From the IMG/VR virus record IMGVR_UViG_3300027771_000091, positions 1 to 25,385 of that record: a stretch of 25,385 nucleotides of DNA, one strand, 5' to 3'. This document shows, in pieces, positions 1 through 5,184 of the stretch (its first letter is position 1; each line of letters opens with the position of its first letter). The notes under the pieces are model-generated. The model searched no databases and was not told the origin of the DNA. It saw nothing but the letters and a program-made list of their open reading frames with translations. Origin of the DNA: a virus. The position numbers and the translations under genes were made by a program.

Positions 1-379
1 ATTTATCTTTACTATCCCAATCCCAAGCAGGAACTTTATCATTACTATAATTGTTAATATCCCAATTACGATTAGAAGCCCAATCTTTCAGTTTGGTTTC
101 TAGCTTTTGAGAAGCGTCTCTTAACTTGGTTCTTTTAGCATTAAGTAATTTATCAATACTATCAAAAAAAGTATTGTAATCACTTTCTGCCATGTCAACT
201 GCTTTCAAATCCTTTTCAACTTGAAGCGTTTTAGTGAAGCTACCAAAGTTTTTTTCACTAGTCTCTCTGATTTCTGCAAGGTGCATACTTTCAATAGCTT
301 GTATTTTAGTTTGGAACTTACTATTAAGTTTATTTTCCCAATACTCTTTATTGTCTTTGCTTATTTGTTTTGTGCTCAT
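1..379 (-). CDS. Partial coiled-coil-like protein, unknown function (runs off left edge)
   Basis: An open frame reads leftward from ATG at 379 to the window edge, giving 126 residues with no stop, so the C-terminus lies outside. A GGAGC ribosome binding site sits about 6 bases before the ATG. The protein begins MSTKQISKDNKEYWENKL and is rich in Lys, Glu, Ser and Thr with helical, coiled-coil-like heptads, then ends near the edge in a Trp/Asn/Asp-rich stretch (WASNRNWDINNYSND). No domain is recognised. It is the first gene behind the leftward promoter-like repeat at 447-482, so it probably starts its own transcription unit. A scaffold-type or other virion role is possible but not shown. Confidence 0.75.
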   Translation of the reverse strand, partial: MSTKQISKDNKEYWENKLNSKFQTKIQAIESMHLAEIRETSEKNFGSFTKTLQVEKDLKAVDMAESDYNTFFDSIDKLLNAKRTKLRDASQKLETKLKDWASNRNWDINNYSNDKVPAWDWDSKDK

Positions 380-446: not shown

Positions 447-482
447 GATATCTTATGTATATGGGATATATTAAGAAGTCAA
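447..482 (-). promoter_or_regulatory. Promoter-like repeat, copy 1 (leftward)
   Basis: This 36-bp block matches 5149-5184 at 31 of 36 positions without gaps. Read leftward it starts with TTGACTT, a perfect -35-like hexamer plus one base, and continues through a TATATCCCATATA core to TATACA and TAAGATATC. TATACA lies 15 bp after TTGACT and could serve as the -10 box; TAAGAT lies 21 bp after it. The next leftward start codon is at 379, leaving a leader of about 60 bases. The flanks are pure AT-rich intergenic DNA, so conservation of this block stands out. A host sigma-70-type promoter, possibly overlapped by a repressor site, is inferred. Confidence 0.6.
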
Positions 483-620
483 GCGTTAAATTAAAATAAA
501 AAAAATAATAAAATAACAAAAATTATAAAGGGTATAGGGTAAAAAATTAATACTCTTACTATAAAAGCTAAAAAATTATCCATAGCAACAAAGATATACG
601 TTAAAAAAATTATTACAAGA

Positions 621-956
621 TTAAACTTTTATTTTTCTAATAGATTGAATTACTGATGTTGGAATAATTGTAGTATTACCAACATTATCAAATGTTGGTT
701 TTTCTTTAGTCTCTATATAATCTGTAAAAATTCTTGTTATACCATTAGATTGATTTAACAGATAACCTTTGGAAACACACACAGGTAATTTTTCTTTATT
801 TAAATCTTTTGTACTACTCCAACCTGCGTCCCCCTCAATATCCAACCACCTTATCTCAACGAAAGGATATTGTAAAATATCATTGCCTAAATTCTTAAAA
901 TTAAAATTTAAAATTTTTGATTTTTGTAATTTTTTATTTTTCATAAATTCCCACAT
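621..956 (-). CDS. Conserved hypothetical phage protein, 111 aa
   Basis: The frame gives a compact protein with a distinctive centre: VEIRWLDIEGDAGWSS (about residues 33-48), then VCVSKGYLL, a tyrosine-containing IFTDYIE segment and a C-terminal IPTSVIQSIRKIKV. This beta-rich arrangement resembles small hypothetical proteins I know from marine phages, but no function is assigned. The first ATG (956) lies in the second unit of a 33-bp tandem duplication, six bases after the stop of a micro-ORF (963-989). An in-frame ATG at 944 (MKNKKLQ) with GGGAA upstream is an alternative start. About 240 bases of AT-rich non-coding DNA follow to the left, including the promoter-like repeat at 447-482. Confidence 0.72.
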   Translation of the reverse strand: MWEFMKNKKLQKSKILNFNFKNLGNDILQYPFVEIRWLDIEGDAGWSSTKDLNKEKLPVCVSKGYLLNQSNGITRIFTDYIETKEKPTFDNVGNTTIIPTSVIQSIRKIKV

Positions 957-1005
957 AAGGCTTCAAAGTTTTGAAAATAATTCCCACATATAACCTCAAA
1001 GTTTT
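940..1005 (-). repeat. 33-bp tandem duplication with nested micro-ORFs
   Basis: Two adjacent 33-bp units (973-1005 and 940-972) both begin AAAACTTTGA on the minus strand and share TATGTGGGAATT. The period is eleven codons, so every frame is preserved. In one frame ATG at 1008 overlaps the previous stop as ATGA and reads 24 residues (KTLRLYVGI..KTLKPYVGI) to 934, with AAGG upstream. In another frame unit 1 encodes an octapeptide MWELFSKL (963-989) preceded by GAGG, ending six bases before the 111-aa gene's ATG, which unit 2 supplies. Either or both could be translated; no product is known. Confidence 0.6.
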
Positions 1006-1100
1006 CATTTCTTTACCTTAAATTTATTGTCAATTACTACGCTTACAATACCAACAGAAGTATGCAAATGTTTGTTGTGAACTTCATTAAATACTTGCAT
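1005..1100 (-). CDS. Small protein of 31 aa, unknown function
   Basis: The frame from ATG at 1100 encodes MQVFNEVHNKHLHTSVGIVS followed by VVIDNKFKVKK. It begins ten bases after the terminase small-subunit stop and ends in a TGA that forms an ATGA overlap with the micro-ORF starting at 1008, which fits tight phage gene packing. Reading the frame further upstream would run it into the terminase gene in another frame with no good start, so the short form is preferred. The sequence shows no membrane segment or known motif. The spacing and plausible composition argue for a real gene; the short length keeps confidence moderate. Confidence 0.45.
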   Translation of the reverse strand: MQVFNEVHNKHLHTSVGIVSVVIDNKFKVKK

Positions 1101-1110
1101 AAAATTACCG

Positions 1111-1620
1111 TCATTTATTAAGTTCTTCTGGCGTAACGTCAATAATGTTTTTAGCTTCTCCAATTTTTCCTTCAAGCTCGGTAAGCCTACTTTCAAGTTG
1201 TTCACGACTCATTCCCTCCAATCCAACATGGGTTACTTCTTTTTTATCTATAAAAAATCCTGCCATCTGTCCGCTACGATATTCTGCATTTACGGCAACA
1301 GAGAATTGTTTTTTATCTTCTGCTTTTTTACTTAGTGTCTCAAACCTTTTATATTTTTTAAGCTTGTCCCCTTCGTGTTTTTTTAATTCTTGAGCATATT
1401 TCATTTCCATATAACGCACAACGTGGGGGTTTTTATTTGGATCAGTTAGTCTGCTGGCGATTTCTGTGGGCCCTTCTTTTTTAATAGAATTATATCCTGC
1501 CCTTGATGCAGCTTCAGTTTTAGAGATCTCTCCCCAGTTACTAACATATATATCTACAAAGGCCTTTTGCTTTAATGTGAGCTCAGCAGTAGATTTTAAA
1601 GTATTTTTTCTTTTAGTCAT
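1111..1620 (-). CDS. terS: Terminase small subunit
   Basis: This 169-aa protein should recognise the packaging site and hand concatemeric DNA to the large terminase. Residues about 15-60 carry the typical opening of phage small terminases: LTLKQKAFVDIYVSNW, then KTEAASRAGYN and a later NPHVVRYMEMK, matching the LTxKQxxFVxxY...A..AGY...NPxV pattern of the Terminase_2 family. The remainder is charged and helical, ending in a coiled-coil-like LESRLTELEGKI stretch suited to oligomer formation. AGGT lies seven bases before the ATG. The large subunit is not adjacent, which is unusual; it may lie beyond the left edge or elsewhere. The 409-bp non-coding block directly upstream is a candidate recognition site. 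Confidence 0.75.
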   Translation of the reverse strand: MTKRKNTLKSTAELTLKQKAFVDIYVSNWGEISKTEAASRAGYNSIKKEGPTEIASRLTDPNKNPHVVRYMEMKYAQELKKHEGDKLKKYKRFETLSKKAEDKKQFSVAVNAEYRSGQMAGFFIDKKEVTHVGLEGMSREQLESRLTELEGKIGEAKNIIDVTPEELNK

Positions 1621-1715
1621 CTTGACCTGTTATATCATAATTTTTCCCTAATACACTTTACTACAAACTATTTTTTTATTTTTTTATTACAGTGAAAGGC
1701 CTCAAGAAGTATATT

Positions 1716-1734
1716 TTCCTAGAACTACTAGGAA
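1716..1734. promoter_or_regulatory. Inverted repeat TTCCTAG-N5-CTAGGAA
   Basis: Perfect 7-bp arms (1716-1722 and 1728-1734) flank AACTA. Further TCCTAG copies follow at 1749-1754 and 1792-1797, and CTAGGA at 1857-1862. The arrangement looks like a multi-site binding region for a dimeric DNA-binding protein; the small terminase subunit encoded next door, or a repressor, are candidates. Confidence 0.4.
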
Positions 1735-1997
1735 TCTTCCCAGTGTTTTCCTAGTCTATTTTGCTCTAGAAGTATTATATATCAACGTTTTTCCTAGTTT
1801 CCCAGAGAAAAACCCTTACAAACTTTTTTTTATTTTTTTTTTTCTAAGGAAGTGTACTAGGAGAGAGAACCGTGAGCCGTGGTCACTGTGTCATTGACCT
1901 ATATTAAAGATTGACGTATCCCGTTCCAGGCATTAAAGTTATATCGAGTTATGTTTTTATCATTATCATAATCTCATTGTTAGTTAGATATGTTAAA

Positions 1998-2029
1998 TCT
2001 GCAGTTGAGAATTGCTCCCCAACTGCAGA
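1998..2029 (-). terminator. Stem-loop directly after the 157-aa gene
   Basis: TCTGCAGTTG and CAACTGCAGA form a perfect 10-bp stem around a 12-base loop, immediately next to the leftward gene's stop (TAG at 2030-2032). On the leftward transcript the stem is followed by ATTTAAC, not a proper U-run, so it may stabilise the mRNA end or act as a processing site and not as a standard intrinsic terminator. Confidence 0.4.
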
Positions 2030-2503
2030 CTACATTTCAATAGATAAATCTTTTAAGAATTTAGTAACATAAACATTATCAGCCATCATGATCTGTCTAC
2101 GTTTATTTTCTACATTACGTCTAAGTTCACGTCTGTAATCTAAGTTAGTTTCAACTTTTAATCTTTGAAATAATTTATCGTATTCATGCCATAATAAATG
2201 TCTTCTTTTAAATTTTATATCACCTTTAGTCAGGGCCTTATAATATCTATAACGTACATCTTCTGGTTCCCATCCAGCCCACCAACAAATTTGTTCAAAA
2301 TCTAAGGACTCTGCAATCCAGTAGTGAGCGTCACACTTATTTAAGCTTGGCTTACGGTCTCCAGATTCAGTTCTAGTATCTTCAAAAGCATTTAAAATTA
2401 CATGTCTCCACAACTTCTGCTCATTACAAACATGATTTTCGCTTGTAATATCAGACGTTATTTTAATGCCCATAAGTCTTAATAAGTCTACTGAGTAGAG
2501 CAC
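2030..2503 (-). CDS. Conserved hypothetical protein rich in Trp and Arg, 157 aa
   Basis: I do not recognise a named family, though proteins of this style (LWRHVILNAFEDTR, then AHYWIAESLDFEQICWW and RRELRR) are familiar from marine phages. It is mostly helical, with a Trp-rich centre (WIAESLDFEQICWWAGWEPE, about residues 62-81) and an Arg-rich region (about 123-136), which would suit nucleic-acid or virion binding. The listed start is GTG at 2503 with AAAGG about nine bases upstream; it overlaps the preceding gene by 41 bp. ATG at 2473 (MGIKITSD) would reduce the overlap to 11 bp but has a weaker ribosome site. A strong hairpin follows the stop. Confidence 0.7.
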   Translation of the reverse strand: MLYSVDLLRLMGIKITSDITSENHVCNEQKLWRHVILNAFEDTRTESGDRKPSLNKCDAHYWIAESLDFEQICWWAGWEPEDVRYRYYKALTKGDIKFKRRHLLWHEYDKLFQRLKVETNLDYRRELRRNVENKRRQIMMADNVYVTKFLKDLSIEM

Positions 2504-2678
2504 GATAATGGCCTTTCGATTTTTTAAAGTTTAATCGAGTGGCGATCTCAAAATGTTCATGTACATCATCAATTAATATTGTAATGGCTGCGCCTTGTAA
2601 ATTTTCTTCTGCAATGTGTTCGGTTATCTCATTAAAGTCTAGCTGAGACTCTTCCTTACTATAGTTGTCAGCCATCAT
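2463..2678 (-). CDS. Small hypothetical protein, 71 aa
   Basis: The protein starts MMADNYSKEESQLDFNEI and continues as an acidic helical protein ending LLSRLIKTYGH. AGAGG lies 5-6 bases before the ATG at 2678, a good ribosome site, and the start overlaps the preceding gene by 11 bp, so translation is probably coupled. No domain, membrane segment or signal peptide is visible. It belongs to a run of four overlapping small genes (3145 to 2030) between the sigma-like gene and the terminase block. Function unknown. Confidence 0.6.
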   Translation of the reverse strand: MMADNYSKEESQLDFNEITEHIAEENLQGAAITILIDDVHEHFEIATRLNFKKSKGHYRALLSRLIKTYGH

Positions 2679-2964
2679 AATTAACCTCTTTACTATAGTC
2701 TTTAAATTGTATTACGTTATCTTTGTATTTAACTTTATCTTTTTTAGTTAACTTCTTATGTACCTTATCACCTTTGTGCATAACAAATAAATCATTGGAG
2801 TCTTCTAAAAACCTACCATCCATTGAGTTATAGCCGAAATTAACGCCATGCATTAATGCAAATAATACAGACTGCAGCTTACCATACTGCCTCTCATTAA
2901 AATTTTTTGAGGCATCTATTAAGACCTTAGTTAGATCAGTGATACCACCCTTTTTCTCTGCCAT
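2668..2964 (-). CDS. Small hypothetical protein, 98 aa
   Basis: Residues 1-45 form a likely helical domain (GGITDLTKVLIDASKNFNER, then LQSVLFALMHGVNF), followed by a very Lys-rich C-terminal half (VHKKLTKKDKVKYKDN). The basic tail could contact nucleic acid, but no family is recognised. The start at 2964 overlaps the zinc-finger gene by 29 bp and GGGA lies about eight bases upstream. Part of the same overlapping leftward operon as its neighbours. Confidence 0.6.
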   Translation of the reverse strand: MAEKKGGITDLTKVLIDASKNFNERQYGKLQSVLFALMHGVNFGYNSMDGRFLEDSNDLFVMHKGDKVHKKLTKKDKVKYKDNVIQFKDYSKEVNYDG

Positions 2965-3145
2965 TTATGTAATCCCACGCTACTTTAAATAATAATACTT
3001 GTTGAGCTTCTGATGATGAGCCGTGGTTCGTTATTCCTGATCCATTGCAAATGATACAAGATACAAAACTATGACTAAAAGTTTTTATTTTACCTGTACC
3101 TTTACAGTCGGTACATATCTTGTGGTTGCGTAATAGTTTAGTCAT
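2936..3145 (-). CDS. DnaJ-type zinc-binding small protein (two CxxCxGxG-like motifs)
   Basis: This 69-aa protein carries CTDCKGTGKI and, about fifteen residues later, CIICNGSGI: a pair of CxxCxGxG motifs like one zinc site of the DnaJ central domain. The rest (SEAQQVLLFKVAWDYINGRE) is helical and has no J-domain, so it is not a co-chaperone by itself. Small phage proteins of this kind may bind zinc and nucleic acid or protein partners. ATG at 3145 is used as the start; a TTG eight codons upstream would only add a few unlikely residues. No clear ribosome site precedes either. It is first in the four-gene overlapping cluster. Confidence 0.65.
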   Translation of the reverse strand: MTKLLRNHKICTDCKGTGKIKTFSHSFVSCIICNGSGITNHGSSSEAQQVLLFKVAWDYINGREKGWYH

Positions 3146-3229
3146 ATAAAAATTTTGCTTGTGTTGCAAGTCTTTATTATAAACTAATTAAGGTCGTGGG
3201 TACAAGGTAGATGGAAAATTATTTTTTCA

Positions 3230-3928
3230 TTAATTTAAATGTTTTTTACTTAACCGTTCTAAAAAAGAATCATCCATATCCATATCTGCATCATCTTCTT
3301 TTTTAATTTTTTTTAAATGATTAGGTAAATTTTTTATATTAAATACTTCATCTGCACCTGATTTTAATATTTTTCTCATAACATTCGGATGGGACATTCT
3401 ACGTTTAGCTCTAGCAAGGATCTGTCTAACTCTTTCTGTAGATACTCCAAAAGTTGTAGCAATTTGTGCTAACGTTTGTTCATGGCCATCATCAAAACCA
3501 AACTTCATTTTAAGCATGGCAGCTTCTCTAGATCCAAGGCCCATCTCAATTGCATAACGAATATTATTTTTTGCATCCTGTTCAATCATTTTCGTCTCTT
3601 GATTCACAGCTGGGTTAATAAGTGCTTTAAGATCTTCTTCTTTAACTTTAATTTCAAAAGATCTTTTATTAAATCCTTTCATTTGTCTAGGTGTAAAACA
3701 ATCTTCAAACTCTGCTCCTAAAGCTTTTAAAAGTTGGTCACATATATAACATAACTCACCATTATCTTTAATAGGTTTAAGTTTACCACTAATTAATTCT
3801 GTTGTTCTTTGGTATTCTAGTTTTTGTGCTTCACAAAATTTCCTAACACTGACATACCCTTGGTCTTCAATTAGTTTTAGTATTCGTTCGTTTCTTATTG
3901 TTATCTTAACTCTATAATCATTTGTCAT
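3230..3928 (-). CDS. HTH plus sigma-70 region 4 regulator
   Basis: The 232-aa protein joins two DNA-binding parts. Residues about 25-78 look like a Cro/XRE-type helix-turn-helix (SVRKFCEAQKLEYQRTTELI, then LKALGAEFEDCFTP). Residues about 130-185 match sigma-70 region 4: an RE-aML-MKFGFDDG start, then TLAQIATTFGVSTERVRQIL and AKRRMSHP, which recognises the -35 element and contacts the RNA polymerase flap. Sigma regions 2 and 3 are absent, so it cannot melt promoters alone; it may act as an appropriator or anti-sigma-like switch of host polymerase. The C-terminus is strongly acidic and Met/Asp-rich (DDADMDMDDSFLE). AGAGGT precedes the ATG, and a 14-bp dyad lies 23 bases upstream. Confidence 0.78.
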   Translation of the reverse strand: MTNDYRVKITIRNERILKLIEDQGYVSVRKFCEAQKLEYQRTTELISGKLKPIKDNGELCYICDQLLKALGAEFEDCFTPRQMKGFNKRSFEIKVKEEDLKALINPAVNQETKMIEQDAKNNIRYAIEMGLGSREAAMLKMKFGFDDGHEQTLAQIATTFGVSTERVRQILARAKRRMSHPNVMRKILKSGADEVFNIKNLPNHLKKIKKEDDADMDMDDSFLERLSKKHLN

Positions 3929-3950
3929 TTTTTACCTCTTAGTTATTTTC

Positions 3951-3964
3951 TGCTAAACTTAGCA
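3951..3964. promoter_or_regulatory. Dyad TGCTAA-AC-TTAGCA before the sigma-like gene
   Basis: Perfect 6-bp arms around two bases lie in the 82-bp gap between the 77-aa gene to the right and the regulator at 3928. The dyad sits 23 bases before the regulator's ATG, just upstream of its ribosome site. A site of this size fits an HTH dimer, so autoregulation by the XRE-like domain is a reasonable guess. Confidence 0.35.
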
Positions 3965-4010
3965 AACTGAGATAACCCTGCAATAACTTTTTTTATAGGA
4001 CTATCCCATA

Positions 4011-4244
4011 TTAATTCTCAATGTATTCTTTCCTACTGGCATCCCTCATCTTCAAGAATTTAAACTTAGCAATCTTTAACATTCTTTCAAACAAAGATTC
4101 TGCTTTAAATGTTTTAACTACATTCATGACCTTGCCATTAACAATAAAAGTAAGCGTGTTAGTGGCATGGTCTAATTCAACAGTAAACAATTCTTTAGCT
4201 TTGATTCGAGTATCAATTCTTTTTAGATCGTTTTCCGTCATCAT
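4011..4244 (-). CDS. Small hypothetical protein, 77 aa
   Basis: The protein starts MMTENDLKRIDTRIKAKELF and contains a beta hairpin-like stretch (TVELDHATNTLTFIVNGKVM) followed by a basic helical tail. ATG at 4244 is chosen because GGAG lies at ideal spacing (GGAGATAGTAATG); an ATG twelve bases upstream at 4256 overlaps that ribosome site and is less likely. The gene overlaps the end of the preceding one by 32 bp. No domain is recognised. A long open frame on the opposite strand here is judged a shadow. Confidence 0.55.
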   Translation of the reverse strand: MMTENDLKRIDTRIKAKELFTVELDHATNTLTFIVNGKVMNVVKTFKAESLFERMLKIAKFKFLKMRDASRKEYIEN

Positions 4245-4440
4245 TACTATCTCCATTTAATAATTTGTTTACCAAAGTTTCTGTAGATATTTTTTGTTTT
4301 TTAGCCTCATATTCTACATGACTGTGTATTAACTTAGATATCATGGCTCCTGGGGCCCTAAACTTTTCCTTACATATTGCTTTGAGTAAGGAATAATCTT
4401 TCTTTTTAACTGCTACCGATTTCCATTTTTCAACATTCAT
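4213..4440 (-). CDS. Possible ribbon-helix-helix-type small DNA-binding protein
   Basis: The 75-aa protein has a short N-terminal strand (WKSVAVKKKDYSLL), a helix (LLKAICKEKFRAPGAMI) and a second helix (SKLIHSHVEYEAKK), the order expected of ribbon-helix-helix proteins of the Arc/CopG class, which act as dimeric repressors. The conserved turn is not a textbook match, so this is tentative. The C-terminus is Ser/Asp/Lys-rich and probably disordered. GGAG lies nine bases before the ATG, which overlaps the preceding gene by 11 bp. Confidence 0.5.
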   Translation of the reverse strand: MNVEKWKSVAVKKKDYSLLKAICKEKFRAPGAMISKLIHSHVEYEAKKQKISTETLVNKLLNGDSNDDGKRSKKN

Positions 4441-4873
4441 TTTTAATCTCCATATCTTTTGTTAATAATAAAGGTTCCTCTGTTGCTAATTTGCCTAAAG
4501 CTAAAGTTGTTAAACCTAAAGCTTCTGTGAGTTTTTTATTCTCATCCTTAAGTTTTTTTATATTAGCTTGAAGTATATCAAGGTTTTTAAATAAACCTTT
4601 TCTTGCTTCTTCTAGTTTTCCAAGTGCATCTAAATTGCCTTCTGGTTGTTCCCCTAAAGGTAGTACATCTTTTATTTCACTTATGTTTATTGTCATTTGT
4701 TTCTCCTTATATTTTTTATCTAATCTTCTTTTTTCAAAGGGCTCAGCTAATGTCATCTTCATCTCTCTAAAAAAAGCTTCTACCTTTTTTATATAACCTA
4801 AAGGTAAATCATCTAAGTTATTTTCATGGTAAGCGTTAGCCCAACCATAGCCTGTTGTTTTTATCTTACTCAT
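4430..4873 (-). CDS. Coiled-coil protein with a possible internal start, 147 aa
   Basis: Residues 1-58 form a basic domain (GYGWANAYHENNLDDLPL, then VEAFFREMKMTL), and residues about 80-120 form a clear coiled coil (LEEARKGLFKNLDILQANIK, LKDENKKLTEALGL). GGAG precedes the first ATG. A second, stronger ribosome site, AAGGAG six bases before an in-frame ATG at 4696 (MTINISEIKDVLPL), could give an 88-aa form containing only the coiled-coil part. The two halves could also be a fusion of two formerly separate genes. Function unknown. Confidence 0.65.
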   Translation of the reverse strand: MSKIKTTGYGWANAYHENNLDDLPLGYIKKVEAFFREMKMTLAEPFEKRRLDKKYKEKQMTINISEIKDVLPLGEQPEGNLDALGKLEEARKGLFKNLDILQANIKKLKDENKKLTEALGLTTLALGKLATEEPLLLTKDMEIKNEC

Positions 4874-5112
4874 TTTAAATTTATCTCCTTATCTCTTCTA
4901 CCAGGTATTGATGCACGTATCATTGGTGGATCAGTTAACCCATCCATAGCATCTATATAAACTTCTAGTGGACCTGCATTAGTTTTCATGGTTACATAAC
5001 AACATCCTTTCATTCTTATGTCAAAATGAATGCCTTTGGCATAACGATCTTCAGATCCGTTATGTCTACGGATTGCCATATGTTTTTTAGTTCTTCTAGT
5101 TCTTCTAGCCAT
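4870..5112 (-). CDS. Small basic hypothetical protein, 80 aa
   Basis: The N-terminus is highly basic (MARRTRRTKKHMAIRRH), followed by a compact beta-rich part (IHFDIRMKGCCYVTMKTN, then LEVYIDAMDGL). The basic arm suggests nucleic-acid binding. TAGGAGATAAAAGAT before the ATG is a strong ribosome site, making 5112 the best start; it overlaps the next gene by 4 bp. This is the first gene behind the promoter-like repeat at 5149-5184 and so probably leads the leftward unit 5112 to 621. Confidence 0.65.
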   Translation of the reverse strand: MARRTRRTKKHMAIRRHNGSEDRYAKGIHFDIRMKGCCYVTMKTNAGPLEVYIDAMDGLTDPPMIRASIPGRRDKEINLK

Positions 5113-5148
5113 ATCTTTTATCTCCTATTGTTTTGTCATTGTTAATAT

Positions 5149-5184
5149 GATATCTTACTTATATGGGATATAATTAAAAGTCAA
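5149..5184 (-). promoter_or_regulatory. Promoter-like repeat, copy 2 (between divergent genes)
   Basis: This block matches 447-482 at 31 of 36 positions. Read leftward it has TTGACTT, the TATATCCCATATA core, TATAAG at 15 bp spacing and TAAGATATC, about 36 bases from the start codon at 5112. Read rightward it contains TATAAT at 5170-5175, but that is only eight bases before the ATG at 5184, so a rightward role would have to use a different -10 upstream. The first base of that ATG is the last base of the repeat. Confidence 0.6.

What the first reader, a model, noticed from the sequence alone, without database searches (positions are those of the whole stretch)
447..5184. A 36-bp promoter-like element occurs twice, 4.7 kb apart
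Blocks 447-482 and 5149-5184 match at 31 of 36 positions without gaps, in otherwise AT-rich intergenic DNA. Read leftward both carry TTGACTT, TATATCCCATATA and TATAAG or TATACA, followed by TAAGATATC, and each precedes the first gene of a leftward unit (379; 5112). Conservation of the central TATATCCCATATA, beyond -35 and -10 hexamers, hints at a shared regulator. Nearby genes encode a sigma region 4 protein and a ribbon-helix-helix-like protein that could bind it.
Basis: partly seen in the sequence, partly recalled or inferred. Interest (0 to 1): 0.6.

Follow-up and report, generated by a model that had tools for sequence, protein, structure and literature searches.

The report
Shared operator on pelagiphage early promoters
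The repeated 36-base block is a real phage promoter with a mirror-symmetric protein-binding site laid over it; the same site sits on several genes in a large group of phages that infect SAR11, the ocean's commonest bacteria, and is probably read by a small repressor that the phage itself encodes.

Summary
In detail: 447-482 and 5149-5184 match at 31/36, and the pattern never occurs in shuffled sequence. The window is a pelagiphage fragment related to HTVC023P. The element is widespread: all 79 homologues of HTVC023P gp11 fetched by protein sequence alone carry it directly upstream, usually with the ATG at position 37 (near-leaderless).

It is a TTGAC -35 box plus an 18-bp dyad, ATCYYA-N6-TRRGAT (window 450-467, 5152-5169), over the -10 region. 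The dyad occurs 55 times in 30 related records (reversed-pattern control: 0), mostly upstream of separate small genes. It flips orientation and lies 6-20 nt from the -35 box while staying in the core promoter. That fits an operator for a dimeric regulator, not a sigma-factor motif.

Best candidate regulator: the ribbon-helix-helix-like protein (4213-4440, minus), found in 30/30 records and downstream of the head promoter in all 173 places with enough DNA. The sigma-region-4 protein is in 5/30. HTVC027P, from the same host strain, lacks the operator and has a diverged homologue. Repression is inferred from geometry; binding, start sites and the -10 register are untested. Closest known logic: P22 Arc-type autorepression.

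The parts
5149..5184 (-). Head promoter-operator (P1): TTGACT -35 box at 5179-5184, candidate -10 TATAAG at 5158-5163 (15-bp spacer; register uncertain)
   Evidence: direct reading
5152..5169 (.). 18-bp dyad operator ATCCCA-TATAAG-TAAGAT (shown on the minus strand)
447..482 (-). Second promoter-operator (P2): TTGACT -35 box at 477-482, candidate -10 TATACA at 456-461
   Evidence: direct reading
450..467 (.). 18-bp dyad operator ATCCCA-TATACA-TAAGAT (shown on the minus strand)
4213..4440 (-). Ribbon-helix-helix-like protein, 75 aa, candidate regulator, encoded in the P1 unit
   Evidence: in 30/30 records; downstream of P1 in all 173 places with enough DNA; AF2 model
4870..5112 (-). First gene of the P1 unit in this phage (80 aa, unknown function); preceded by an AGGAG-type ribosome site
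2..379 (-). First gene behind P2 (126 aa or more, cut by the window end, unknown function)
3230..3928 (-). Sigma-70 region 4 protein, 232 aa; not the likely regulator of the element
   Evidence: PF04545 E 5e-10; 5/30 records, absent from HTVC023P

Best explanation
Each copy is a host-RNA-polymerase promoter (TTGAC -35 box) whose -10 region is covered by an 18-bp two-fold-symmetric operator, ATCYYA-N6-TRRGAT. The operator belongs to a small regulon in the HTVC023P clade of pelagiphages: one copy heads the early-type unit (P1), and in many genomes further copies head separate small genes, several of them between the two terminase genes. The most likely reader is the phage's own ribbon-helix-helix-like protein, encoded in the P1 unit, which would bind as a pair of dimers and block RNA polymerase: negative autoregulation that shuts these promoters once the protein has accumulated. 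Shown: the element, the dyad, its recurrence, its placement on promoters, the linked candidate gene. Inferred: binding by this protein, repression rather than activation, and timing. My split: operator of a dimeric regulator 0.85; phage-encoded reader 0.8; this protein 0.65; repression 0.7.
For: All 79 gp11 homologues fetched by protein alone carry the element. The dyad occurs 55 times in 30 records against 0 for the reversed-pattern control; in HTVC023P 3 sites against a Markov mean of 0.14, and spacers 0-12 other than 6 give none except one at 7. Of 54 non-redundant sites 39 have TTGAC 14-20 nt upstream, and several others TTGAC or TTGCA 6 nt upstream. The unequal half-sites flip relative to the promoter at the same distance (L007:12059, L052:7362), and L052:5874 is fully symmetric. 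Most secondary sites lie just upstream of separate small genes. The candidate gene is in 30/30 records, downstream of P1 in 173 of 173 usable places, and the only one of the three families universal among 29 P1 units that looks like a DNA-binding protein. HTVC027P, same host strain, lacks the operator and has a diverged homologue.
Against: No binding or expression data. The fold assignment is weak: no Pfam match for the window protein, RHH_1 in only one of 38 members at E 0.0023, no significant structural match. The diverged homologues in phages without the operator mean that co-occurrence alone cannot prove the link. Records were mostly picked through the head copy. The promoter has a weak -10 and an unusual best spacer of 15.
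Confidence: 0.6

Rival explanations
1. The conserved block is an alternative-sigma promoter (host RpoH/sigma32-like, TTGA...CCCATNTA), so the phage genes ride on the heat-shock sigma factor.
For: CCCATATA resembles the sigma32 -10 element (own knowledge), and host rpoH was reported up during infection by the sister phage HTVC027P (PMC12753301).
Against: The TTGAC-to-CATATA spacing is 13 bp, 2-3 shorter than I know for sigma32. Conservation runs on into TAAGAT. The motif flips and slides relative to TTGAC. HTVC027P itself lacks it.
Confidence: 0.1
2. The operator is real but is read by another protein (host-encoded, or another phage protein), or the effect is activation.
For: The ribbon-helix-helix assignment is weak. 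The DnaJ-type zinc protein and the 98-aa protein are equally universal in the unit. Binding was not tested.
Against: HTVC027P on the same host strain lacks the operator, against a host reader. Variable placement within the core promoter fits blocking better than activation. The sigma-like protein is in 5/30 records.
Confidence: 0.25
3. Only a conserved promoter: the two copies are a recent duplication, and the dyad has no protein reader.
For: TTGAC boxes with AT-rich -10 regions are ordinary, and the two window copies are 86% alike.
Against: Flanks beyond the element differ between the copies. ATCYYA-N6-TRRGAT is kept across divergent phages and unrelated downstream genes, in both orientations.
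Confidence: 0.05

Closest known systems
Phage P22 Arc repressor with its operator on Pant (own knowledge); RelB-relO of E. coli as a studied relative (PMC2812701)
   Same: Small phage protein of the proposed ribbon-helix-helix type, encoded behind the promoter it would control; pseudo-palindromic operator of about 18-21 bp with 6-bp half-sites lying over the core promoter.
   Different: Here many separate promoters share the operator; half-sites ATCYYA are 6 bp apart; the fold, the binding and the repression are not shown.
Sigma70 promoters of pelagiphages such as HTVC027P
   Same: TTGAC(A/T) -35 box with AT-rich DNA upstream. The sister phage HTVC027P is reported to have no RNA polymerase of its own and to rely on the host's (PMC12753301).
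   Different: The -10 match is weak and the best plausible spacer is 15 rather than 17 bp; the dyad is not part of a sigma70 promoter.
Sigma32 (RpoH) heat-shock promoters
   Same: CCCATATA resembles the -10 element.
   Different: Spacing too short, motif flips and slides, further conserved TAAGAT.

Membership tests
Ribbon-helix-helix autorepressor-operator system (Arc/CopG/RelB type) | Protein has the strand-helix-helix fold | tested here: inconclusive
   AF2 model pLDDT 77: no helix at residues 6-12, helices 13-26 and 33-49. No significant structural match; AmrZ, Arc, CopG and CdbA only among weak hits. RHH_1 in one of 38 members.
Ribbon-helix-helix autorepressor-operator system (Arc/CopG/RelB type) | Symmetric operator overlapping the promoter of its own unit | tested here: met
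   Dyad over the P1 promoter, gene 219-1370 nt downstream on the same strand in 173/173 usable places.
Ribbon-helix-helix autorepressor-operator system (Arc/CopG/RelB type) | Protein binds the operator and represses | not testable with these tools
   Needs a binding assay and a reporter.
Sigma70 promoter | TTGACA-like -35 box | tested here: met
   TTGAC conserved in the unselected set.
Sigma70 promoter | TATAAT-like -10 box at 16-18 bp | tested here: inconclusive
   Mean matrix score +0.8 at 15 bp and -3.5 at 17 bp for the P1-distance sites.
Sigma32 (RpoH) promoter | CCCCATNT-type -10 at its usual distance and in fixed orientation | tested here: not met
   13-bp spacer; flipped and shifted copies.
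Promoter read by the phage sigma-region-4 protein | Gene co-occurs with the element | tested here: not met
   5/30 records, absent from HTVC023P.

The most novel reading that the evidence does not exclude
A phage-encoded ribbon-helix-helix regulon, with up to six operators per record and not described in the papers searched, is the early-gene switch of the HTVC023P clade. Its head promoter drives leaderless or near-leaderless mRNAs, and sister clades of the HTVC027P type run a diverged version built on ATCCTA half-sites.
Probability: 0.35. Interest if true: 0.65.

Novelty: new member of a known kind. Interest (0 to 1): 0.5.

Why it matters
[quoted passage not shown] This finding gives a concrete operator sequence, a candidate regulator and a list of target genes in a culturable phage-host pair (HTVC023P on HTCC1062), so early transcription control in these phages becomes directly testable. 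The principle, a small autorepressor on early promoters, is familiar.

Tried and rejected
The first collection scan used a pattern with one N too many and found nothing. Sigma32-type promoter: rejected on spacing and flipping. Sigma-region-4 protein as regulator: rejected on co-occurrence. TAAGAT as the -10 with a 21-bp spacer: it scores well on the matrix but would put the start inside or past the ATG of the gp11-type genes, and it is better explained as the second half-site. The one genome-contig hit (L107, filed under a Flavobacteriaceae MAG) looks like a stray phage contig with TerS and the RHH-like gene. Paper searches pairing pelagiphage or early promoter with ribbon-helix-helix found nothing.

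Full report
OBSERVATION. The two blocks are as described: 31 of 36 positions identical without gaps. They are the only places in the window matching the merged pattern with up to 3 mismatches, and 100 shuffles gave none. The window is a whole virus record of 25,385 bases. Its only near relative among annotated phages is Pelagibacter phage HTVC023P (MN698239), 78.5% identical over 34% of the query. Read leftward, copy 2 (5149-5184, here P1) precedes the first gene of a leftward unit (ATG 5112). Copy 1 (447-482, P2) precedes ATG 379, beyond the small terminase gene.

THE ELEMENT IN RELATIVES. A loose pattern (TTGAC-N9-TATCCCATNTA-N2-TAAGAT) matches 81 IMG/VR contigs. In most of these the ATG of one gene family, that of HTVC023P gp11, lies exactly at position 37, counting the first T of TTGAC as 1. 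As an unselected test, gp11 relatives were fetched by protein alone. All 79 with a readable start carry the element directly upstream, and 20 non-redundant upstreams give a clear conservation profile over TTGAC and TCCCAT..TA..TAAGA. No Shine-Dalgarno sequence fits between element and ATG, so these mRNAs are probably leaderless or nearly so (inference). The window and other relatives instead have a leader with a ribosome site and the ATG at 68-73. HTVC027P and 023Pt_psg01 have no element-like site in the 30 and 25 kb scanned and show ordinary-looking TTGACA promoters.

WHAT IS CONSERVED. The part behind the -35 box is a pseudo-palindrome: ATCCCA-N6-TAAGAT, generalised ATCYYA-N6-TRRGAT. In 30 related records it occurs 55 times, with 0 for the pattern read backwards. 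Most records were picked because they carry the head copy, but by my count about two thirds of the sites are other copies. HTVC023P has three (7951, 15174, 16557), the window two, and the complete HTVC027P and psg01 records none. In HTVC023P the 3 sites compare with a Markov mean of 0.14, and among other spacers from 0 to 12 only spacer 7 gives one. Of 54 non-redundant sites, 39 have TTGAC 14-20 nt upstream of the dyad, and several of the rest have TTGAC or TTGCA 6 nt upstream. The unequal half-sites point either way relative to the promoter, even at the same distance (L007:12059 and L052:7362), and L052:5874 is fully symmetric, ATCCCA...TGGGAT. The secondary sites mostly stand just upstream of separate small genes. 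A few dyads lie inside genes and may be chance (the L034/L073 sites).

MECHANISM. A motif that is two-fold symmetric, flips, and slides while staying within the core promoter is what a dimeric regulator's operator looks like, not a sigma-factor element. Covering the -10 region or spacer at variable offsets favours blocking of RNA polymerase. The ribbon-helix-helix-like gene (window 4213-4440; HTVC023P gp13) is in all 30 records: strongly in the HTVC023P clade, diverged in HTVC027P, psg01 and G011, which lack the operator. It lies 219-1370 nt downstream of P1 on the same strand in all 173 P1 places with enough DNA; these places include overlapping loci of the same contigs. Of the families tested, only it, the DnaJ-type zinc protein and the 98-aa protein are in all 29 non-redundant P1 units. 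The sigma-region-4 protein is in 5 of 30 records. The AF2 model shows a non-helical stretch followed by two helices (mean pLDDT 77). The structural search gave nothing significant, though AmrZ, Arc and CopG are among the weak hits. The proposal is therefore negative autoregulation of an early unit plus co-regulated genes, Arc-like in logic. Binding, direction of the effect and timing are not shown; that the unit is early is inferred from its position and small unknown genes.

PROMOTER REGISTER. With an E. coli -10 matrix typed from general knowledge, the best plausible register for sites at the P1 distance has a 15-bp spacer (mean +0.8); 17 bp scores -3.5. Either would put the start within a few bases of the ATG at 36-37. 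The register stays open.

SISTER CLADES. ATCCTATA is over-represented in the HTVC027P part held (7 against 1.7 expected) and in L098 (5 against 0.96), often near TTGAC, but not in psg01 (1 against 1.3). This hints at a diverged version of the same control; it is a lead only.

LITERATURE. For HTVC027P infection: no phage RNA polymerase, host rpoD and rpoH up, all early genes of unknown function (PMC12753301). No held paper pairs pelagiphage with ribbon-helix-helix. The Arc comparison rests on general knowledge; RelB-relO (PMC2812701) is a studied relative with 6-bp repeats.

Noticed in passing
L035 375-690: L035 shares the upstream side of window copy 1, but downstream the element is joined to the interior of the gene that normally follows (codons near 133 onward of the 209-aa version in L022), as if a deletion removed the start of that gene.
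   Followed up: partly
L206 (HTVC027P) 419, 11603, 17365, 17690, 19252, 19804; L098 7955, 9034, 11814: ATCCTATA/TATAGGAT is enriched near TTGAC promoters in sister clades, including sites facing HTVC027P gp33 and gp34, which PMC12753301 reports as an extra temporal class.
   Followed up: partly
L097:1395, L098:7955, L099:1934: In relatives with a diverged RHH-like protein the promoter before the homologous small gene carries a perfect 14-bp palindrome, TCCTATATATAGGA, over its -10.
   Followed up: no
window 2936-3169 (-): Small protein with CxxCxGxG repeats resembling the DnaJ zinc domain (PF00684 E 1e-4, below cut-off); present in all 29 P1 units compared.
   Followed up: no
L107 (DIAL01000039.1): A 3.7-kb contig filed under a Flavobacteriaceae MAG carries the element, TerS and the RHH-like gene: probably a mis-binned phage contig.
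   Followed up: partly
L017, L022, L040, L074, L078, L107: In one subgroup the element holds a tandem half-site, TATCCCATG-TATCCCATG, inside the spacer.
   Followed up: no
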